Shown: positions 355 through 48,321 of the stretch, in pieces | How the letters are laid out: every line of letters begins with the position of its first letter | How positions within the stretch are numbered: the stretch's first letter is position 1 | Notes under the pieces: generated by a model | Told to the model about the DNA's origin: nothing | The model's database searches: none | What the model saw: the letters and a program-made list of their open reading frames with translations, nothing else | Assembly (NCBI RefSeq): GCF_000695685.1 | Contig: NZ_JFFR01000025.1 | Location: 124,001 to 188,000 of the forward strand | DNA length: 64,000 nt | DNA from: Vibrio fortis | GTDB lineage: Bacteria > Pseudomonadota > Gammaproteobacteria > Enterobacterales > Vibrionaceae | Direction: 5' to 3' | Made by a program: the position numbers and the translations under genes

Positions 355-954
355 TTACTCTTTAATCATGCTCATTGTTACTCGACCAAGCACATTTATG
401 TCTTCTTCTGTTGCTTCAATAGTCGAGTTCCCAAAGCTTATTGCGAGCTTCTTACCAGGTAATCTTTGAACTTGGTTTATAGAGTGAGCGCCGTCTATTT
501 CTATCAGGTAACGACCAGAAGTAGCGTGGGTTTCTTCTGAGTTAATAAAGCATCGTTGACCATCGTGCTCGACGATAATGGTTTTACTTGCTTTCAACCC
601 ATAACCATCAAGAGTAAGTGAGTCGATTGAAAGAGAGCCTCTTTCTTCAAGCTTCCCATTGAGAATGATGTTAATTGAAATGGAGTCCGCTGGGGATTGC
701 TCGTCATCGAATGGTTTACCTTCACCAAGGGCAAGGTACCTAACAGAAGCCCCAGACTTTAGGTGCTCCCTCACAATCAACTCGAATCCTGTCCGATCAT
801 GGTGATGCCAAGTCGAAAACGTAGAACTAGGTACGCCATAGTAGTCACTCATAAGCTCATAAGTCTTACAACCAGTCACTTCTTTTAGCTTTTCGGTAAA
901 TTCCCGCCCCTTCAAGTACTCAAATGGAGGAACTTTTGCTTTTAATCTACTCAT
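355..954 (-). CDS. Phage CI-type repressor (186/K139 family)
   Basis: 199-residue repressor, close to the length of coliphage 186 CI. The first 80 residues form a helix-turn-helix domain of the phage CI repressor family (KLKEVTGCKTYELMSDYYGVPSSTFSTW region). The C-terminal half (about 95-199) is a beta-rich oligomerisation domain like the S24/LexA fold, but I see no Ala-Gly cleavage site with a clear Ser-Lys dyad. Members of this type are usually released by an antirepressor rather than RecA-stimulated self-cleavage. It is transcribed divergently from the Cox-like gene, and the 190-bp gap should hold the lysis/lysogeny switch promoters and operators. Confidence 0.85.
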   Translation of the reverse strand: MSRLKAKVPPFEYLKGREFTEKLKEVTGCKTYELMSDYYGVPSSTFSTWHHHDRTGFELIVREHLKSGASVRYLALGEGKPFDDEQSPADSISINIILNGKLEERGSLSIDSLTLDGYGLKASKTIIVEHDGQRCFINSEETHATSGRYLIEIDGAHSINQVQRLPGKKLAISFGNSTIEATEEDINVLGRVTMSMIKE

Positions 955-5003: not shown

Positions 5004-7514
5004 ATGAAAAACACAGCTAAACCAACCTTCACCGAGTCGCAAAAACGTGCAGCCTCCATCGCTTGTCAGCAATGGGGGCATTTGCACGTTTATCCGCAAA
5101 AACCTAAAGCGGTAGAGTCTTTGGCAGAACGCCCTGTGTTTGATCGTGAACCGGAGGGTATGAGTGTTACGGAACGCAAACTATTTGAAGCGAACCCAGA
5201 AGACTTCGAGTGGGCACGAGAAAGAATTAAAGACCTACCGGATTACCTAACCAAGTACTTCGTGACTCGTTACATTTCAGTTTTCGAAAAGAAAAGCAGA
5301 AGAGAAGCGAACATCTTTTTGCGTGAGCGCATGGGGCCAGCTGCAGAGCGTGCGCTTATGGTTTTGCGCAAATACAAAAAACTACCGACAACCCAAAAGG
5401 TTTCTTTGCTTAGTGAAGAGTTTAGCGACACTGAGCAAAGTGACTTTGCCAACAATAAGCAAGCGTACTTTGATTTTGACAAGGTAGAACAAAATCGCAA
5501 GCCAGTAAAAAATCGATTACTCGCAGAGCTTGAGCCATCTGAAATCAAAGAGATGGCTTTTAAAATCTCTGTCATTGTTGATCGCTTTTTTCGATTGGAA
5601 AGCGACAAATATCACGCAAAGACCGAGCTTGGTACCACCATGGCGGTGGTGTTCACCTATGAGCAAGTAGCTAAGTTCGTGACCGATACTTTTGGTGTTA
5701 AGCCTCCTCGCAAGTACAAAGACCAATCCGAACTATCTGCCCTACAAGACATCTCAAGGCTGATCAGCGAGAAGTGGTGGTGTGGCCGTCTTAATAAAAT
5801 CCGCAAAATTATGCGTGAGCACCTAGCCATTGCAATGGGACAAGTATCTTCTAAGGCTTCACCGTATGCGTCTTGGGATTGTGTTCGTGAACACCAAGAA
5901 CAGCAAACGGCCAACTATGAATACATCAAACAGTGTCAGCTATTAGATGAAGAAACAGGTGAAGAAGCTGATTTGTGGGATATGGTCAAAAAGAGTGTGG
6001 CTAACCCTGCGATACGTCGTCATGAATTAATGGTGCGTTGTCGTGGCTGTGAAGACATTGGTAACGAGCTTGGTTTACAAGGTTTGTTCTTAACGCTGAC
6101 CACGCCAGCTAAATATCACAACTCATACAAGAAAGGCGGTTTCATTGGTCACTGGAACGGCGCAAGCCCACGTGATGCACAAACGTACTTAAACAATGTA
6201 TGGCAACGAATCCGTGCCAAGTTAGGCCGCAAAGACATCCGTTGGTTTGGGGTTCGCGTTGCAGAGCCGCATCACGATGGCACACCACACTGGCACTTGC
6301 TTATCTGGGTTAAGCCAGAGGACAAAGAGTTAGTTACAGAAATATTTGTCGATTACGCAACGAAAGAAGACAAGCATGAGCTATTTGATAAACAAGGCAA
6401 GTTTGATCACTCGGCTCGTTGTGATGTAGGTGAAATTGACCCAGAGTTAGGCACCGCAACAGGATACATCGCTAAATACATTTCCAAAAACATCGACGGT
6501 TTCGCTATGGACGATGAAGTGTCCGACGAAACTGGCAAGTCAGTTAAAGACATGGCGAAGAATGTGAGTGCTTGGAAAAGCCGTTGGAACATTCGCCAGT
6601 TCCAGTTCTTCGGTGGTGCTCCGGTTACGACTTACCGTGAATTACGCCGCTTTGCTAACCAGAACAAAAAAGCGTTTATGGAATACCTCTTCATGCAAGA
6701 GCGCGTCGACCTACTCACTATTTACTCGATGTTACAGCGTGATTTGGTTGGGCCTATCAAGCCGAGCAAGCTGATCACCAATGAAGAGTTGATGAAGGTG
6801 ATTGGTGATAGCTACCAAGCACGCACTAAGTCAGAAGATGCAAGCATCACAGACACTTTAAAAGCTGCCGACCATGGTAACTGGCAAGGTTACATCATGG
6901 GGCAAGGTGGCCCATTCGTTAAACGTGAAGATTTGCTGATCGTGAACTCTTATGAGGTTTTGCCGTTTGCTTCACCACATGGGGAAGACGTTCGCAAAAT
7001 TGAAGGTTTCGCGACACCAGAAGAAACCATCAAAACACGCACCAAAGTTTGGACAATCCAGAAGAAGTCCAAGGTTAACGATGATGTTGAAGCGGGGGCT
7101 CTTGCTCTTTCTGGAGCCTCTGGCTCCTCTCGGAGTTCTGTCAATAACTGTACGGAGCCCGAGAAAGTACAGGTCTGCGATCAGCTAACCAGGTTATTAG
7201 CTCCAAATGAAATATTGGCGAATAGCCCACCAAATATTGATGAGTTTGCCTTAACTGCATTGCTAAAAGGCAGCTCACTAAAAGTAGATAACGAGACAAG
7301 TCTTCAAATCCGCCCTGCGGAGGTAGACGAACACGGCAATAAACGCCCAGCACAGCTTGTCGAAGTCAGCCGTGCACCTGCAGATGATCTGAAATGGATG
7401 GATTTTGAAGGGTGGGACCAACTATTTGCTCAACCTGAGCAAGTAAAAGATGAATACCAACAACCAGACCTTTCGTTCTTCCCTGAGTTGGAAAGCGACT
7501 GGCCGCTTAATTAA
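5004..7514 (+). CDS. P2 gpA-type replication initiation endonuclease
   Basis: 836-residue rolling-circle initiator of the HUH superfamily. The metal-binding motif is at His429-Trp-His431 (TPHWHLLIW), and the catalytic tyrosine pair is Y488 and Y492 in YIAKYISKN, the two-tyrosine arrangement known from P2 gpA. It would nick the phage origin, join to the 5' end and drive single-strand displacement with host Rep. The family is usually near 750-800 residues; the extra length is a low-complexity tail after about residue 690. It is the last gene of the early operon and meets the leftward 7511-8080 gene tail to tail with four bases shared. Confidence 0.92.
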   Translation: MKNTAKPTFTESQKRAASIACQQWGHLHVYPQKPKAVESLAERPVFDREPEGMSVTERKLFEANPEDFEWARERIKDLPDYLTKYFVTRYISVFEKKSRREANIFLRERMGPAAERALMVLRKYKKLPTTQKVSLLSEEFSDTEQSDFANNKQAYFDFDKVEQNRKPVKNRLLAELEPSEIKEMAFKISVIVDRFFRLESDKYHAKTELGTTMAVVFTYEQVAKFVTDTFGVKPPRKYKDQSELSALQDISRLISEKWWCGRLNKIRKIMREHLAIAMGQVSSKASPYASWDCVREHQEQQTANYEYIKQCQLLDEETGEEADLWDMVKKSVANPAIRRHELMVRCRGCEDIGNELGLQGLFLTLTTPAKYHNSYKKGGFIGHWNGASPRDAQTYLNNVWQRIRAKLGRKDIRWFGVRVAEPHHDGTPHWHLLIWVKPEDKELVTEIFVDYATKEDKHELFDKQGKFDHSARCDVGEIDPELGTATGYIAKYISKNIDGFAMDDEVSDETGKSVKDMAKNVSAWKSRWNIRQFQFFGGAPVTTYRELRRFANQNKKAFMEYLFMQERVDLLTIYSMLQRDLVGPIKPSKLITNEELMKVIGDSYQARTKSEDASITDTLKAADHGNWQGYIMGQGGPFVKREDLLIVNSYEVLPFASPHGEDVRKIEGFATPEETIKTRTKVWTIQKKSKVNDDVEAGALALSGASGSSRSSVNNCTEPEKVQVCDQLTRLLAPNEILANSPPNIDEFALTALLKGSSLKVDNETSLQIRPAEVDEHGNKRPAQLVEVSRAPADDLKWMDFEGWDQLFAQPEQVKDEYQQPDLSFFPELESDWPLN

Positions 7515-8080
7515 AGCTGAGTAATGGATTCAGAAGGGTCGCCTTGAGTGAGCTCTATTTGTTTTAGCAATTGTTCGTATTCAGCTTTGTCGAGAATCTT
7601 TTTCTGAGAGATTTCTTCAATCATCGGTACGAAACCTTGCTTGCTGCTCCACAGTATAAAAGTAAATACACCTAAAACTAAAATCACTAACATCGATGCT
7701 GTAATACTTTGCCAAACTCCATACATGAAGTTAGTTGATTTAGCATTCCTGAGCTTTCGTTCGTAGTCCTTCCTTTTTTGCTCTAGTTGCTCGTTGTAGC
7801 CAACTTCGAGTTCATCAATTTTCTCAGACTCAGAAAGGTTGGCATATTCATCTAAGATGTTAGCTGCGGCTTCTTCATAGAACGAGAGCTGAGCATCAGA
7901 CGTGGAAATAGCCATGAATGATTCAAGTTTGTCACCAGGTAATGGTTCTTGCTCGCTATCAGTATGAGATTTTATGAAATCAATTTTTTGGCGTTTATAC
8001 ACCGAGTAGGCGACGATGCCTAAGATATCGTTTTCATTCTTTACGAGTTTTTCGTAAATCAAATTGTATTGCTTAGACAT
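7511..8080 (-). CDS. Single-span membrane/coiled-coil accessory protein
   Basis: 189 residues: an acidic helical N-terminal region, a coiled-coil stretch around 85-115 (ELEVGYNEQLEQKRKDYERKLRNA), one transmembrane segment (SMLVILVLGVFTFILW, about 128-146) and a short helical tail. The start is ATG 8080, behind CGGAAA and 11 bases after the stop of the upstream small gene; a TTG at 8095 is an alternative. It lies between the replication gene and the portal block, the position where P2 has tin and old, a known phage-exclusion cargo site. No known exclusion family recognised; the role is inferred from position. Confidence 0.65.
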   Translation of the reverse strand: MSKQYNLIYEKLVKNENDILGIVAYSVYKRQKIDFIKSHTDSEQEPLPGDKLESFMAISTSDAQLSFYEEAAANILDEYANLSESEKIDELEVGYNEQLEQKRKDYERKLRNAKSTNFMYGVWQSITASMLVILVLGVFTFILWSSKQGFVPMIEEISQKKILDKAEYEQLLKQIELTQGDPSESITQL

Positions 8081-8091
8081 GTTTTCCGTAA

Positions 8092-8268
8092 TCAAGCTAA
8101 ATCTTTGGAGCGATTGATAGATGCTTGCATCATCATTGCACGAATCTCACCTACCGAACGCTTACGACGACGGATTGGAGTTTGAATGTAGATCGTTTCT
8201 GTCTCTTTTCGACCATATCTCATTATTTCAGCTGCTTTCATAGCGGCTGATAGGTGTCTTTTACTCAT
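8092..8268 (-). CDS. 58-residue basic accessory protein
   Basis: Short leftward gene with a strong GAGGAAG ribosome site and ATG at 8268. The product is strongly basic with a PIRRRKRSV patch and methionine-rich helix (EIRAMMMQASINRSKD), suggesting nucleic-acid binding. It is the first gene of a two-gene unit with the 189-residue membrane protein (gap 11 bases). A promoter with -35 TTGATG and -10 GATAAT lies about 50 bases upstream. No family recognised. Confidence 0.6.
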   Translation of the reverse strand: MSKRHLSAAMKAAEIMRYGRKETETIYIQTPIRRRKRSVGEIRAMMMQASINRSKDLA

Positions 8269-8599: not shown

Positions 8600-8932
8600 T
8601 CAAGCTCGTTTCTTTTCCAGCTCCTGGTGAATCGAATGGATGAGGTCTAGCAGTTCATTGCGAATGCTGACCGGAAGCGAATGAATTAATTCACGGCGAG
8701 ATTCTGTAACCGCTTCGTGCAATGCAACATGAGAGAAAGGTATTTTGAGCGCCGCGCATAGTAACCGCATTTGGCGAATATCTATAGGTCGTTCGCCTTG
8801 TTCCAAACGTTGCAACATGCGGTACTCGATGCCAGATAAACGAGCCAGTACCTTTTGGGTTTTCCGTTGTCGTAGTCGCTCTTGTATGAAAAACAACATG
8901 ATAGGGTCGGTGTATCGATTGTTAGTTGGCAT
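8600..8932 (-). CDS. XRE-family helix-turn-helix regulator
   Basis: 110 residues. Residues 13-70 form a Cro/CI-type helix-turn-helix (IQERLRQRKTQKVLARLSGIEYRMLQRLEQGERPIDIRQ), and the C-terminal 40 residues are a charged helix likely used for dimerisation. GGAG precedes the ATG. An inverted repeat CGCCA-AATA-TGGCG lies 18 bases upstream of the start and is a plausible autoregulatory operator. It may control the accessory pair at 7511-8268 or the divergent SOS-driven gene. It is not the main CI repressor, which is at 355-954. Confidence 0.75.
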   Translation of the reverse strand: MPTNNRYTDPIMLFFIQERLRQRKTQKVLARLSGIEYRMLQRLEQGERPIDIRQMRLLCAALKIPFSHVALHEAVTESRRELIHSLPVSIRNELLDLIHSIHQELEKKRA

Positions 8933-9112: not shown

Positions 9113-9147
9113 TTGTTACCATAAAACTACTGTATTAATATACAGTA
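9113..9147 (+). promoter_or_regulatory. SOS promoter with LexA box
   Basis: The 20-base site at 9128-9147 reads TACTGTAT-TAAT-ATACAGTA: two perfect 8-base arms matching the LexA consensus CTGT-N8-ACAG and its AT-rich core. It overlaps the -10 (TAATAT, 9136-9141) of a promoter with -35 TTGTTA (9113-9118) and a 17-base spacer. LexA bound here would occlude RNA polymerase, so the downstream gene should be silent in the lysogen and induced by DNA damage. Confidence 0.85.
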
Positions 9148-9168
9148 AATCGTCAGTTAGGAGGCTAA

Positions 9169-9393
9169 ATGTCTGAACTACATCAAAAAGCAGAGGAGTT
9201 GGTTTTGTGTGCGCTCGCAGACGATACATGCTGCGACTGCGATCAAGCCAACGAAGTCGGACTGTTTTTGTTGTCGCTGATCCTCGGACATAAAAAAGGG
9301 CAGCTAATTGCTGCCCCTGTGGAAGAGTTAAGTGCTAAAACAAGGCAAGTTGTTGCTTCAAGTGGTCGCGCTTGTCAGGAGATAAAACCTTGA
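9169..9393 (+). CDS. SOS-induced small protein, candidate CI antirepressor (Tum analogue)
   Basis: 74 residues, ATG eight bases after a strong TTAGGAGG. It follows a near-perfect LexA box. The protein has a CCDCDQ cluster near residue 20 and a hydrophobic helix (EVGLFLLSLILGHK). I see no sequence similarity to 186 Tum, but the logic is the same: in 186 a LexA-controlled gene near the late end makes an antirepressor that inactivates a non-cleavable CI. The last 59 bases overlap the convergent zinc-finger gene, and that gene's terminator hairpin lies inside this frame. The antirepressor role is inference. Confidence 0.6.
   Translation: MSELHQKAEELVLCALADDTCCDCDQANEVGLFLLSLILGHKKGQLIAAPVEELSAKTRQVVASSGRACQEIKP
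9292..9316 (-). terminator. Terminator of the Ogr-like gene, inside the SOS gene
   Basis: Minus-strand hairpin GGGCAGC-AATTA-GCTGCCC followed by six Ts, 19 bases after the zinc-finger gene's stop. It lies within the coding sequence of the convergent SOS-driven gene (codons 42-50), so one sequence serves both. Confidence 0.8.
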
Positions 9394-9787
9394 TTAGGCA
9401 ATCTGCCAAATCGTTGGTCGTTTTTGATGATGGGCTCAGCGTGTGGCTAAAATATAACGACATAACAAATTGATGTTCACATGCTGGATTTTTACATTCG
9501 CAATAAAGGTCTGCACAATCGTTGGATAGGCGGTTAGTTTTCTTGATTACCGCCCGTTCTCCACAACCACAAAAAACACGGCTACCAAATATAGAAGGGT
9601 TGCTAGCCGCGCCAATTCCCATATGAAGCTTTGACGGTTTTAAAGAGTGTCTATACCCGATAGCACTGACGAAGGTGTGCCCACACTCTGGGTTAGAACA
9701 GGAACAAGACAAATCTGCGCAATTGGCATCTTTAGCGATGCTTCTACTTACAATCGCGCGTTCACCACATTTGCAATAAACTCGCAT
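9335..9787 (-). CDS. Ogr/Delta-type late gene activator, double zinc finger
   Basis: 150 residues with two tandem copies of the Ogr zinc-finger module: CKCGERA...CADLSCSCSNPECGHTFV and CGCGERA...CADLYCECKNPACEHQFV. P2 Ogr has one module (72 residues); satellite P4 Delta has two fused, as here. These proteins bind upstream of late promoters and recruit RNA polymerase through its alpha subunit. ATG 9787 begins MRVYCKCG; a TTG extension to 9820 is less likely. It is read leftward, downstream of the terminase-portal unit. In P2, ogr is at the other end of the late genes, so its location here is a rearrangement relative to P2. Confidence 0.82.
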   Translation of the reverse strand: MRVYCKCGERAIVSRSIAKDANCADLSCSCSNPECGHTFVSAIGYRHSLKPSKLHMGIGAASNPSIFGSRVFCGCGERAVIKKTNRLSNDCADLYCECKNPACEHQFVMSLYFSHTLSPSSKTTNDLADCLIKVLSPDKRDHLKQQLALF

Positions 9788-9852
9788 ACATTGACCTAAC
9801 TTAACTGACTGACAGAACAATATTACGTCAATGCCTGTGTTTTTGTACAGTT

Positions 9853-10881
9853 TTATGCAGTTGTTCCCGTATCGGTATCAAACTTTAAATGGAGCCGTTT
9901 GGGGATTTCTGGGTCGCTGTTTACTTCATCCATAATCAGTTCACAAACTGGAATGATTTCATCTTTGGCGTATTCACTGCCAATCTTAATTGGGTCGCCT
10001 AAACTGGTGGTACCTTGAGGGATGATCCCTGCTTTACCTACTGGGAAGCGATGGCCCACTAGAATATCTTGGGCGGTAATATTCTTAATTCGCTCAAATT
10101 CGTCCTTAGTGGCAATGTCGCCCACGGGGATTAGCTGAATCCCTTTCTCTTTGCCGTTTGGAATGTTCACAAACATACTGCGGAAATTACCCACGCCCTT
10201 GGAGCTGGCAATGGTTTCCTTCATCTTCTTTTCGTCTTCTTCACTTAGGTTCGGGTCAGAAGCGTAGAAGATAAAGCCCATGTGAGCCCCGTTCTTGTAG
10301 TAACGGCGACGAAATAGAGTGGCGTCTTTATTTAGCAAGCTGCTCTGAATACTGCCCAAGTAATCGGGTAACCCATAAACTTGTTGCTGCGGGTCGTACT
10401 GAGGTAAGAAGATCACATCTTCTTTGCGGTATTCTCGCTGTTGGTTGTCTCGTTCAAGAATGACAATGTTGCCGTTTTTGCGCCTACGTAAATACATGCC
10501 AGGTAACGGGTGCAAACGTACTACACGTTTAAAGCCATCACGGATTTTTAAGAAAGCGCCATCACCAAAGGTGAAGTAGTCGCGGCAAAAAGCTTGAATA
10601 TGCCTGCGGCGAGTTGAGCCACCTTGTTGGAATCGACCAACCACATAGTTGGCCCGGGCAATCAACAAAGAGCCATGATAGGCGTTGGCTCTGGCAATGT
10701 CGGCTAATCCAGTGCGCGAAATTGGCGGTTCCCAATAGTTATCGGAATCGTTGTAAAACAAATCTGAGTAGGAAGTCATCCAACTATTAGAGTCGATAGC
10801 TTCGGGTGCGGAGTCGATGTGGTAGACCGACTCGGGTGCTTGTTCTTCTTGTTTGACTAAAGTTTCTGTTTGCTCGGTCAT
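9853..10881 (-). CDS. Portal protein (P2 gpQ family)
   Basis: 342 residues, almost the P2 gpQ length (344). The sequence has the family's '[22 protein letters not shown]'-like N-terminal region and '[33 protein letters not shown]' in the centre, typical of P2-type portals. The dodecameric portal sits at one capsid vertex and is the DNA channel for packaging. The start is ATG 10881, overlapping the terminase stop (ATGA), which implies translational coupling. Confidence 0.93.
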
Positions 10882-12656
10882 GCTGCAGTTGCCCAAGTTG
10901 ATTTAGTTGGTGTTGAGTGGTCTAACGGCTCATTAATAATGGCGTGAGAAATTGCCCAAAATGCATCGGCGTGGCCTGTGGTTTGGCTGCGCTCCGCTTT
11001 GAATGTCATGGCGTTGCCGCTGGCGGTTGGTACTCGCTTAATCGCCATGAATGCCATAGCAATGTCTTTGTGTTCGGCATCAAATTGAAGTCGTTTGGCT
11101 TCTACTATGTCGATCATCTTCATCACAAGGCGGTTTTTGTTTTCGTTGCTGTAGTGAATAGCGTGAGACTCACGCGGGTATTTCTTAGAAATTAAGTCCC
11201 AAACACCGCCACCAATGCCCGTGGTATCGACGCCAATGTAAGTGACTTTGTAACGTTGAAATACTTTTTCGATTTCTGAAACGTGATACTGGAAGTTGAG
11301 TCCTTTCCAATAGTGCTTTTCCAATACACGGAATTTTTCACCCGCTACGGCAGGCGGTGCCACAACCACCAAGCAGGCATTGTCTCGGGTTCGGGATGGG
11401 TCATAACCTAACCAAACCTCTCTACGGGCAAAGGGTTGTTTATTGTTTGGTTTGAAGTCCTGCCAGTGGGCCGCGTCTACCATGCCTTTTTCAAGGTCAG
11501 AGAACTTGAAGACAGAAAGCGAACCATCAACAAACACACACATAAACAGGTTGTTGAAGTCGTCTTGGCTGTATTCTTCTCGAAGTTCGTCAATGTCGAA
11601 TAGGTCACAACCACCATTAGCGGCATCTTCAATGGTGACAACATAACGCCACTGCTTATCGTCGCAGAGTCGGCCACCATCGCGATATTCTTCAAAAGTT
11701 GGGAATTCAATCTTGGCGCGAGACTCTTTGCCTTTTCGCCATTGGTCGCCCGTCCAAAATGGGTAAGCCTGGTGCATTTTTGAAGACGGTGTAGAAAAGT
11801 AGGTTTTACGCCACTTCTTATGCGTAGCCATTGCTGAAGCAAGTTTGTTCAGCTCATCAAACTTAGGTATCCAGAAATATTCATCAACATAAACATGGCC
11901 GTGGTAGCTCTGGGCTGTTTTGCTATTGGTTGATAGGAAACGTAGTTCTGCGCCGTTAGAAAGAATGATCGGGTTGCCGGTTAACTCGATGTCTAAGAAC
12001 TCTTTGCCAATGGCAATAATGTAGCTGCGGAAAACTTCCGCTTGAGCGCGAGAAGCAGAAAGGAATATTTGGTTATCGCCCGTTAGAATTGCATCTTCTA
12101 ACGCTTCACCGCTGAAATAGTAAGTCGCACCGATTTGGCGTGATTTAAGGATGTTGCGAATACGCTGCTTAATATTGTTACGCATGACATGCTGATATTC
12201 GAACAGCGATTCATGCCAGCGTTTAAAGTCTTCTTCGGCTAGGTGCTCAATGCTGTTTTTCTTTCGGCTCTTTTTGCGATTGCTGTTACCACCACGGCCT
12301 TGGTTGGCTGGTTCAGTATCATTAGCCTTCGAGCTGCCTTGCGAAAGCATGCGTTCCGCTTTGGCTTTTGCATCGGCATTCGCTTTTAGCAGCTTAACGT
12401 GATGGTCTATGAGTTTATCCATCTCTTTAAGCTGCTGATCGCTTTTCTCGTCTTTATCAATTAACACGGCCAAACGGCGGTTAATCATTTCCTCTACAGA
12501 AAGTTCGTTCAACAACAAAGCCCAGCCGAATTTCTCCGCCCAGGTATAAATGATGCGGTCACTATTTAGGTTAAGTTGCGCCGCTATTTCCTTTGGAGGT
12601 AATCCGCGTAAATAAAGCTTTTTCGCGGCCTCTTTTATTTCGTCTGAATATGCCAT
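10878..12656 (-). CDS. Terminase large (ATPase) subunit (P2 gpP family)
   Basis: 592 residues from ATG 12656, matching P2 gpP (590). N-terminal helix-turn-helix ([29 protein letters not shown]), then an ATPase domain starting near '[16 protein letters not shown]' (adenine/Walker region) with '[12 protein letters not shown]' as the Walker B-like acidic motif, and a nuclease domain in the C-terminal third ([18 protein letters not shown]). It translocates DNA into the prohead. The frame could extend to a TTG at 12725, but that has no ribosome site and no counterpart in the family. Confidence 0.93.
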
Positions 12657-28506: not shown

Positions 28507-29192
28507 ATGTTATTAGGCGCATTATCTTCCGGTTGTTCCCAGAGTTTACAGGCCAGTGGCACTTGCCAAGGTGGGGAAAGGTTGTCGCATTGCCAGAACT
28601 ACCAGAAGAGGGTGACTTATCTGATCGCTTTTATCCTCATTATGCCGTGGATGTTCAGCTACTTGATGAAAAGGGCATGGAATACGAAGACAAACCACCA
28701 CTGCAGGCGGTACCACTTCCGGTGCCTGGTCTTGGTGATCATGCTGGCCGTCTGGAACCACCTGCAATTGGTAGCATTGTAGAGTTAGGCTTTATGTTTG
28801 GGCAACCGGACAAGCCTTTTGTTCGTTGCGTTCTTCCACTTGGCTTCAAGTTACCTGGTATCAAAGAAGGTGAAAGCCGATACCAACAACGTGAAGGTGT
28901 TTACCACCTGGTAGACCAAGACGGAAACTTTGAGCGAAAGACAGATAAAGACGACAAGCTAGAATGTCTTAACCAACGCATCAAAGTACTGGAAAACCGT
29001 TTAGCCGAAATTGAAGGTGACCACACGGAAACCGTCAAAGGTAATAAGGCAACCACGGCTAAGAATATCACCGAGAATGCGGACTCAATAAAGATGAATG
29101 GTGGTAAAGGAGTATGCACAGGTGCAAGCATTTGCCCGTTTATGGGTAAACCACATGTAGACGTATCAACCACCGTATTTGCAGGTAAGTAA
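28497..29192 (+). CDS. Baseplate spike protein (gpV-like)
   Basis: 231 residues. Residues 40-130 form an OB-fold domain with 'PPAIGSIVELGFMFGQPDKPFVRCVLPLG', typical of gpV/gp5 spikes; a coiled coil (LECLNQRIKVLENRLAEIEG) leads to a beta-helical needle region. The end contains 'GKGVCTGASICPFMGKPHVDVSTTVFAGK', a short cap with two cysteines that could coordinate metal. Pierces the outer membrane. Confidence 0.82.
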   Translation: MDVNVIRRIIFRLFPEFTGQWHLPRWGKVVALPELPEEGDLSDRFYPHYAVDVQLLDEKGMEYEDKPPLQAVPLPVPGLGDHAGRLEPPAIGSIVELGFMFGQPDKPFVRCVLPLGFKLPGIKEGESRYQQREGVYHLVDQDGNFERKTDKDDKLECLNQRIKVLENRLAEIEGDHTETVKGNKATTAKNITENADSIKMNGGKGVCTGASICPFMGKPHVDVSTTVFAGK

Positions 29193-48301: not shown

Positions 48302-48321
48302 TACTGTATAAAAAAACAGTT
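48302..48321 (+). promoter_or_regulatory. LexA-box-like site upstream of topB
   Basis: TACTGTATAAAAAAACAGTT keeps CTGT-N8-ACAG with the right outer bases, 16 of 20 positions of the LexA consensus by eye. It lies 66 bases before the topB start and ten bases after ydjA. Confidence 0.55.

What the first reader, a model, noticed from the sequence alone, without database searches (positions are those of the whole stretch)
9113..9393. Candidate SOS-induced antirepressor switch for a P2-like prophage
A near-ideal LexA box (8-base perfect arms) overlaps the -10 of a promoter for a 74-residue gene with a strong ribosome site. The prophage's CI repressor shows no clear self-cleavage machinery. Together this is the coliphage 186 logic (LexA-controlled tum inactivating CI), but the protein does not look like Tum. 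It may be a new antirepressor family.
Basis: partly seen in the sequence, partly recalled or inferred. Interest (0 to 1): 0.78.

Follow-up and report, generated by a model that had tools for sequence, protein, structure and literature searches.

The report
SOS-triggered prophage switch protein, Vibrio
A 74-residue gene in a P2-like Vibrio prophage sits behind a DNA-damage switch (LexA site) that most related prophages examined keep at the same spot; it most likely wakes the sleeping phage by disabling its repressor, as the Tum protein does in coliphage 186, although this has not been tested at the bench.

Summary
A LexA box (9128-9147, 18/20, eight-base arms) lies just before a 74-aa ORF (9169-9393) with a strong ribosome site; no other site in the window comes within three mismatches, and none occurred in 100 shuffles. 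CI is of the 186 type (PF16452), with no peptidase domain found. The idea is strengthened: of 80 portal-ranked viral contigs, 75 (77 evaluable) have a LexA box driving a 52-88 aa ORF before ogr. The ORFs form one divergent family (partly PHROG 5581, unknown function; K139 orf12 included). In 186, PSP3, Fels-2, ENT90, two Yersinia phages and ESSI-2 the region after gene A holds tum or its free N-terminal half, TumA. SOS74 lacks Tum's DinI half; its family shows a weak, co-linear profile match to TumA (E 0.0028; 0 of 303 decoys score higher). Relatives in two other genomes follow C4 antisense RNAs (10 of 13 loci). Against a dedicated CI partner: SOS proteins 17-19% identical occur with CIs 99% identical. 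Best reading: a LexA-controlled, TumA-like antirepressor that tolerates different CIs. A second, weaker LexA-like site precedes ogr. Nothing was tested in vivo.

The parts
9113..9118 (+). -35-like hexamer TTGTTA
   Evidence: Read from sequence; promoter scan at 9/12 did not list it
9136..9141 (+). -10-like hexamer TAATAT, inside the LexA box
   Evidence: Read from sequence; inferred by analogy with 186 p95, whose -10 overlaps its LexA site
9128..9147 (+). LexA box TACTGTATTAATATACAGTA
   Evidence: identical in 14 of 15 homologous phage/viral loci read upstream
9159..9164 (+). ribosome-binding site AGGAGG
9169..9393 (+). SOS74: 74-aa predicted LexA-controlled antirepressor (TumA-like)
355..954 (-). 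CI repressor, PF07022 + PF16452, 186 type; presumed target
5004..7514 (+). replication protein A, left border of the slot
   Evidence: named from its relatives
9335..9820 (-). ogr/B late-gene activator with two Ogr_Delta zinc fingers; ATG probably 9787; overlaps SOS74 antisense
9833..9852 (-). second LexA-like site (13/20), 46 bp upstream of the probable ogr ATG
   Evidence: 66 of 83 ogr loci have one at >=13/20, 0.25 expected
8600..8932 (-). divergent HTH_3 regulator, variable neighbour, not part of the core unit
9853..10896 (-). portal protein Q, right border of the slot

Best explanation
The gene is the SOS trigger of this P2-like prophage. LexA keeps it off in the lysogen (shown: box; inferred: repression). 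DNA damage leads to LexA cleavage and synthesis of a small helical protein. It binds CI, probably a conserved surface of its C-terminal domain, stops it holding the early promoter without cleaving it, and the prophage is induced (all inferred, by analogy with Tum/TumA). The core (about residues 1-46, a predicted helical hairpin) is probably a remote relative of the N-terminal antirepressor half of Tum; the DinI half is missing. Because the same CI occurs with very different SOS proteins and the reverse, its action is probably broad rather than CI-specific.
For: Box and ORF. Conservation of place: 75 of 80 contigs (77 evaluable) have box plus small ORF before ogr; gene A was found in 59 of the 73 with a box >=14/20, always before the box. 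Of the 30 loci returned for the strongest whole-genome matches 29 have the box. Geometry as in 186: LexA site 29044-29063, tum start 18 bp after it, 21 bp here. Free TumA after A in PSP3, Fels-2, ENT90, YenM_324, YenM_06.16-2 and ESSI-2 with boxes of 17-19/20. PSP3's upstream half has the antirepressor activity (PMC3121763, Discussion read, which cites a personal communication). Repressor type: 14 of 16 phages tested with a PF16452 repressor have a LexA-driven small ORF in the slot, 0 of 4 with an S24 repressor. Profile match to TumA E 0.0028; 0 of 200 permutations and 0 of 303 decoys as high. C4 antisense RNA before related chromosomal ORFs in 10 of 13 loci.
Against: No expression, binding or induction data. 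TumA homology is weak: HH probability 10.9% after the sets had been enlarged twice; family A alone is not significant (E 0.39). SOS protein and CI do not co-vary well (Pearson 0.51, Spearman 0.27, 55 loci), whereas SOS and ogr do (0.86); CIs 99% identical pair with SOS proteins 17-19% identical. HP1 and F108 have PF16452 repressors but no LexA-driven ORF in the slot and no family match. Of 20 weaker whole-genome matches that I picked, 10 have neither LexA box nor C4 RNA. No fold match. In P1 the C4-regulated region also holds icd, a division inhibitor (PMC8201110, passages).
Confidence: 0.7

Rival explanations
1. SOS-induced host-takeover protein, such as a cell-division or growth inhibitor (like P1 Icd or 186 Fil), that helps the burst but does not inactivate CI.
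For: Does not need to match CI, so it explains the decoupling; related ORFs lie directly after C4 RNA, and P1 has icd in its C4-regulated region (passages of PMC8201110).
Against: Leaves a CI without peptidase domain with no known SOS route; the same place in 186 and PSP3 holds the antirepressor; association with repressor type.
Confidence: 0.16
2. Regulator of another target: LexA/RecA tuning, the neighbouring HTH protein, or the ogr late-gene switch.
For: Strong co-variation with ogr (0.86) and a LexA-like site at ogr too.
Against: Co-variation with an overlapping neighbour is expected from linkage; an HTH110 homolog was found in only 22 of 59 loci; no DinI domain.
Confidence: 0.08
3. TF-smORF module as in Vibrio plasmid-like phages: the divergent HTH protein, not LexA, is the main driver of the small gene.
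For: Divergent HTH_3 gene next to the small ORF; published modules work this way and inactivate cI (PMC10432266, abstract and passages).
Against: The LexA box is kept while the HTH gene varies or is not found; in 13 of 59 loci the box lies within 300 bp of the A stop. The published modules are SOS independent.
Confidence: 0.05

Closest known systems
Tum of coliphage 186
   Same: Place after A, LexA box over the promoter, start 18 (186) or 21 (here) bp after the box, PF16452 CI; two N-terminal helices predicted in both, the Tum model being poor
   Different: No DinI half; sequence match only at profile level and weak
TumA of PSP3 / Fels-2 and free TumA of ENT90, YenM_324, YenM_06.16-2, ESSI-2
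   Same: Free small ORF, LexA box 17-19/20, place after A; PF16452 CI in the four tested, Fels-2, ENT90, YenM_324, ESSI-2
   Different: Core sequence differs: TumA like ERVEMIARLTAEGTCQERDREIALNLIAEIA, SOS74 like AEELVLCALADDTCCDCDQANEVGLFLLSLILGHKKGQL
PHROG 5581 (unknown function), K139 orf12
   Same: Same place and box; the K139 orf12 sequence matches PHROG 5581 at E 2.9e-47; profile link between family A and the PHROG-5581-like set E 4e-6, probability 87%
   Different: 13-32% identical to SOS74; no function assigned in PHROGs
Gifsy GfoA/GftA and N15 AntC antirepressors
   Same: LexA-controlled antirepressors; the Gifsy ones are small, bind the repressor, and some act across prophages (PMC3121763, Discussion)
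   Different: Other phage types, repressors and gene order; sequences not compared here
TF-smORF modules of Vibrio plasmid-like phages
   Same: Small ORF next to a divergent regulator; smORF72 inactivates cI72 without proteolysis (PMC10432266, abstract and passages)
   Different: SOS independent, driven by the regulator; cI72 is itself cleaved after DNA damage

Membership tests
Tum / TumA antirepressors of 186-like phages | LexA box over the promoter, directly before the gene | tested here: met
   9128-9147, 18/20; 186 box also 18/20
Tum / TumA antirepressors of 186-like phages | Place after replication gene A, before cos/portal | tested here: met
Tum / TumA antirepressors of 186-like phages | 186-type CI (PF16452) without peptidase domain | tested here: met
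Tum / TumA antirepressors of 186-like phages | Sequence homology to the N-terminal (TumA) half | tested here: inconclusive
   E 0.0028, probability 10.9%, above all 303 decoys and 200 permutations; E 0.017 with fewer sequences, family A alone E 0.39; one family-B-like cluster alone ranked 64th of 304
Tum of 186 (full length) | C-terminal DinI domain (PF06183) | tested here: not met
   No Pfam hit for SOS74; Tum itself hits DinI at 1.8e-17
Tum / TumA antirepressors of 186-like phages | Binds CI and blocks DNA binding | not testable with these tools
   needs bench work
TF-smORF module | Neighbouring regulator activates the small ORF, SOS independent | tested here: inconclusive
   HTH gene present here but a homolog in only 22 of 59 loci; the LexA box argues for SOS control; activation not testable here
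PHROG 5581 | Profile match | tested here: not met
   SOS74 itself gives no PHROG 5581 hit at E <= 1; a family-A relative gives E 0.069

The most novel reading that the evidence does not exclude
One small helical antirepressor domain underlies TumA of 186-like phages, the LexA-driven small ORFs of Vibrio P2-like phages and the C4-RNA-linked chromosomal copies. It is exchanged between phages with different repressors because it recognises a conserved CI surface, so one prophage's SOS protein can wake co-resident prophages; and LexA also gates the late activator ogr directly, so DNA damage opens the early switch and the late genes together.
Probability: 0.28. Interest if true: 0.75.

Novelty: new variant of a known kind. 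Interest (0 to 1): 0.56.

Why it matters
It gives a testable function to a small-protein family of unknown function that includes phage K139 orf12; relatives of it, LexA-linked or not, occur in 76 of 296 genomes sampled from this bacterial family. It would explain how Vibrio P2-like prophages whose repressor lacks the usual peptidase answer DNA damage, and it raises the question of how one small protein can serve unlike repressors. In the held library my searches listed no paper whose title or abstract start describes this Vibrio gene as SOS-controlled or as an antirepressor; I opened few of the listed papers, and most subscription papers are not held.

Tried and rejected
Pfam, NCBIfam and PDB sequence searches of the 74-aa protein gave nothing; PHROGs one match at E 0.31. 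Foldseek against viral models and PDB gave no match at E <= 0.001. Genome-contig scan: 121 stretches matched a pattern, none confirmed. Class-wide profile searches: 2 of 369 genomes for the SOS family (own, plus one E 0.008 inside a 466-aa frame, judged chance) and 1 of 369 for TumA (E 0.003, no LexA box, judged chance). Single Tum against the family profiles: not convincing (E 0.14 and 0.023, probability 0.4 and 2.1%). Co-evolution with CI as proof of partnership: rejected, the data go the other way. CI as the binder of the ogr site: 0 of 59 CI-cox regions carry the motif, which argues against it. HTH110 as essential partner: rejected. The Tum model was poor (pLDDT 62.9), so the helix comparison is only suggestive. 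In one search the 55 loci are those with SOS, CI, ogr, portal and CII all found and CI > 185 aa; the rest were dropped. The decoys are clusters of short ORFs of the same phage loci, real and spurious, each less diverse than the merged family profile, so the control is not strictly matched.

Full report
Setting. Its first part is a P2-like prophage whose close named relatives are Vibrio phages ZF14_PE001 (92% identical 74-aa protein) and yong1 (69%). I call the 74-aa gene SOS74.

Observation. The box at 9128-9147 is the only site within three mismatches of the (recalled) LexA consensus in 64 kb, with none in 100 shuffles. It scores 18/20, equal to the highest among the 15 host loci read (I recognised the genes behind two of the host boxes, an imuA-like and a sulA-like ORF, from memory, not by a search). 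A -35-like TTGTTA and an inner TAATAT fit a promoter over the box, but a consensus scan did not list them. SOS74 starts 21 bp after the box behind AGGAGG. In 15 homologous phage or viral-contig loci read upstream, 14 have the identical box; in L007 it is interrupted (L010 starts at the gene and was left out). dN/dS of window against nine other family-A copies is 0.15-0.30 in codons 1-46 for seven pairs and not computable for two.

The slot. I ranked viral contigs by portal identity to the window; of 215 relatives the best 80 were kept. With a cut of 14/20, 73 of 80 have a box before ogr and an ORF of 52-88 aa starting 14-65 bp after it. Gene A was found in 59 of these 73, always before the box; in L086, L088 and L090 the box is 0.9-2.1 kb from ogr. 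Two more contigs (L099, L105) have a box with one core mismatch and the gene. L041, L049 and L094 are cut by contig ends, L062 has the gene with an interrupted box, L080 has no box and no family match. So 75 of 77 evaluable loci have box and gene. Many of these contigs are near copies of one another, and some are the contigs again, so the number is not one of independent cases. In whole genomes, 76 of 296 of the same family match the family profile. Of the 30 loci returned for the strongest matches, 29 have a box of at least 13/20 (the 30th, L328, has a broken frame). Of 20 weaker matches that I picked, 6 have a box, 4 have a C4 RNA instead and 10 have neither, so the superfamily is wider than the LexA-linked prophage genes. 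A draw of 369 genomes from the class gave only the own genome and one chance-like hit. The host family is unnamed in these data; Vibrionaceae is my inference from the named phages.

One family. The ORFs fall into groups: A (SOS74), B (PHROG 5581, with K139 orf12), C, D and E. Profile comparisons link them: A with B+C E 4e-6, A with D+E E 3e-8, B+C with D+E E 1e-5 (probabilities 87, 95 and 81%); a group-C protein hits PHROG 5581 at 4e-10. AlphaFold2 gives SOS74 three helices (3-18, 25-42, 51-65; mean pLDDT 81.5). The third lies in the variable tail, partly in the stretch that overlaps ogr.

Comparison with Tum. In 186 the record places p95, its putative LexA site (29044-29063) and tum (29082) after gene A. 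Tum's second half is DinI. PSP3 has the halves as tumA and tumB; Fels-2 has a 62-aa ORF then a DinI gene; ENT90 and YenM_06.16-2 have a short TumA-like gene, YenM_324 an unannotated one, and so does ESSI-2. Of 171 Tum or TumA loci kept from three viral-contig searches, 163 have a box (>=14/20) within 120 bp upstream. [quoted passage not shown] PMC10612066 (passages) reports a homolog of the 186 antirepressor in Pseudoalteromonas P2-like phages. SOS74 has no DinI part. Its family profile against TumA gives E 0.0028 over 36 co-linear columns, HH probability 10.9%; 0 of 200 column permutations (max 18.0) and 0 of 303 decoy families (max 17.4) reach its score of 19.2, and reversed profiles score 11.9 and 13.6. 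This came after the sets had been enlarged twice; smaller sets were weaker (E 0.017; family A alone 0.39; E 0.011 and 0.0048), and one family-B-like cluster alone ranked 64th of 304. I take this as suggestive remote homology, not proof.

Repressors. Of 20 P2-like phages whose repressors I examined, 16 have PF16452 (window, 186, K139, Fels-2, ENT90, YenM_324, ESSI-2, HP1, F108, L045, L047, L087, L091, L099, L104, L105); 14 of these come with a LexA-driven small ORF in the slot, HP1 and F108 do not. The four with an S24 peptidase (phiO18P, A051, PY3, and C5a as a separate protein) have none. HP2 and SW5 have no box in the slot either; their repressors were not tested. The set was chosen by hand. 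By hand from these counts Fisher's p is about 0.003, without correction for relatedness.

Evidence against a dedicated CI partner. Over 55 loci SOS and CI identities correlate at 0.51 (Spearman 0.27), SOS and ogr at 0.86 (0.74). L031 or ZF14 against L081, and L034, L039 or L076 against L040, have CIs 99% identical with SOS proteins 17-19% identical. L045 and L054 have SOS proteins over 90% identical and CIs 48% identical. If the target is CI, the contact must be a conserved part; 31 CI positions are kept in at least 90% of 58 CIs, 14 of them between 147 and 174 of the C-terminal domain. If not CI, the rivals gain.

C4 RNA. Chromosomal relatives of the core (A against this group: probability 98.9%, E 1.6e-17) in two other genomes have no LexA box near them, but 6 of 9 loci and 4 of 4 further ones have a C4 antisense RNA upstream, about 50 bp in the cases I measured; some also have isrK. 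P1 antirepressor expression is regulated by C4 RNA and Icd, and Icd blocks cell division (PMC8201110, passages); isrK precedes a 45-residue ORF and an anti-repressor-like gene in Gifsy-1 (PMC4825925, passages). The window has no C4 RNA at the gathering threshold. This is a second regulatory hallmark of antirepressor loci on the same protein family, but it also keeps the division-inhibitor rival alive.

Second site. Upstream of ogr, 66 of 83 loci have a LexA-like motif at 13/20 or better, 0.25 expected from mononucleotide shuffles, and 0 of 59 CI-cox regions have it. In the window it is 9833-9852, 46 bp before the probable ogr ATG. Its core (CTGTGTTTTTRTACAG) is further from the consensus, so LexA binding is a proposal. 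Sites of 15/20 stand 46 bp before ogr in Pseudoalteromonas phages C5a and PY3, and sites of 14/20 and 13/20 stand 75 and 68 bp before the annotated ogr start in Aeromonas phage phiO18P and Pasteurella phage F108; ESSI-2 and SW5 have none. It thus occurs with PF16452 and with S24 repressors, also where no SOS gene was found. In 186 the B promoter is repressed by CI.

Verdict. An SOS trigger in the Tum position is well supported; antirepressor action on CI is the most likely mechanism (0.7); homology to TumA is probable but unproven. The kind is known; the family as an SOS-linked set and its looseness toward CI were not in the papers I saw.

Noticed in passing
window 9833-9852: LexA-like site 46 bp before the probable ogr/B start; 66 of 83 related loci have one, and so do phages C5a, PY3, phiO18P and F108: possible direct SOS control of the late-gene activator.
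   Followed up: partly
L021-L029, L365-L368 (genomes G083, G037): Dispersed units of C4 antisense RNA (sometimes isrK) plus a 50-60 aa relative of SOS74, some in tandem 1-2 kb apart, one next to tmRNA; C4 found in 10 of 13 loci, no LexA box.
   Followed up: partly
L351-L356: A conserved 57-60 aa relative (MLLEDQDFFVESVEFVLDAVAQDQ...) in six genomes with neither LexA box nor C4 RNA.
   Followed up: no
window 7511-8268: Two minus-strand ORFs (194 and 58 aa) between A and the HTH gene; of 16 related loci searched only L004 has them (100%); the 194-aa one matches PHROG 22648 of unknown function: likely cargo.
   Followed up: no
window 48304-48319: LexA-like CTGTATAAAAAAACAG about 35 bp before a 662-aa topoisomerase-like ORF (48354+; name recalled) outside the prophage part read here.
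   Followed up: no
L007 / L062: One prophage (the same contig in both loci) has the SOS gene intact but its LexA box interrupted by extra bases; expression may be altered there.
   Followed up: no
L072, L074, L336, L337: Two LexA-like boxes in tandem before the SOS gene.
   Followed up: no
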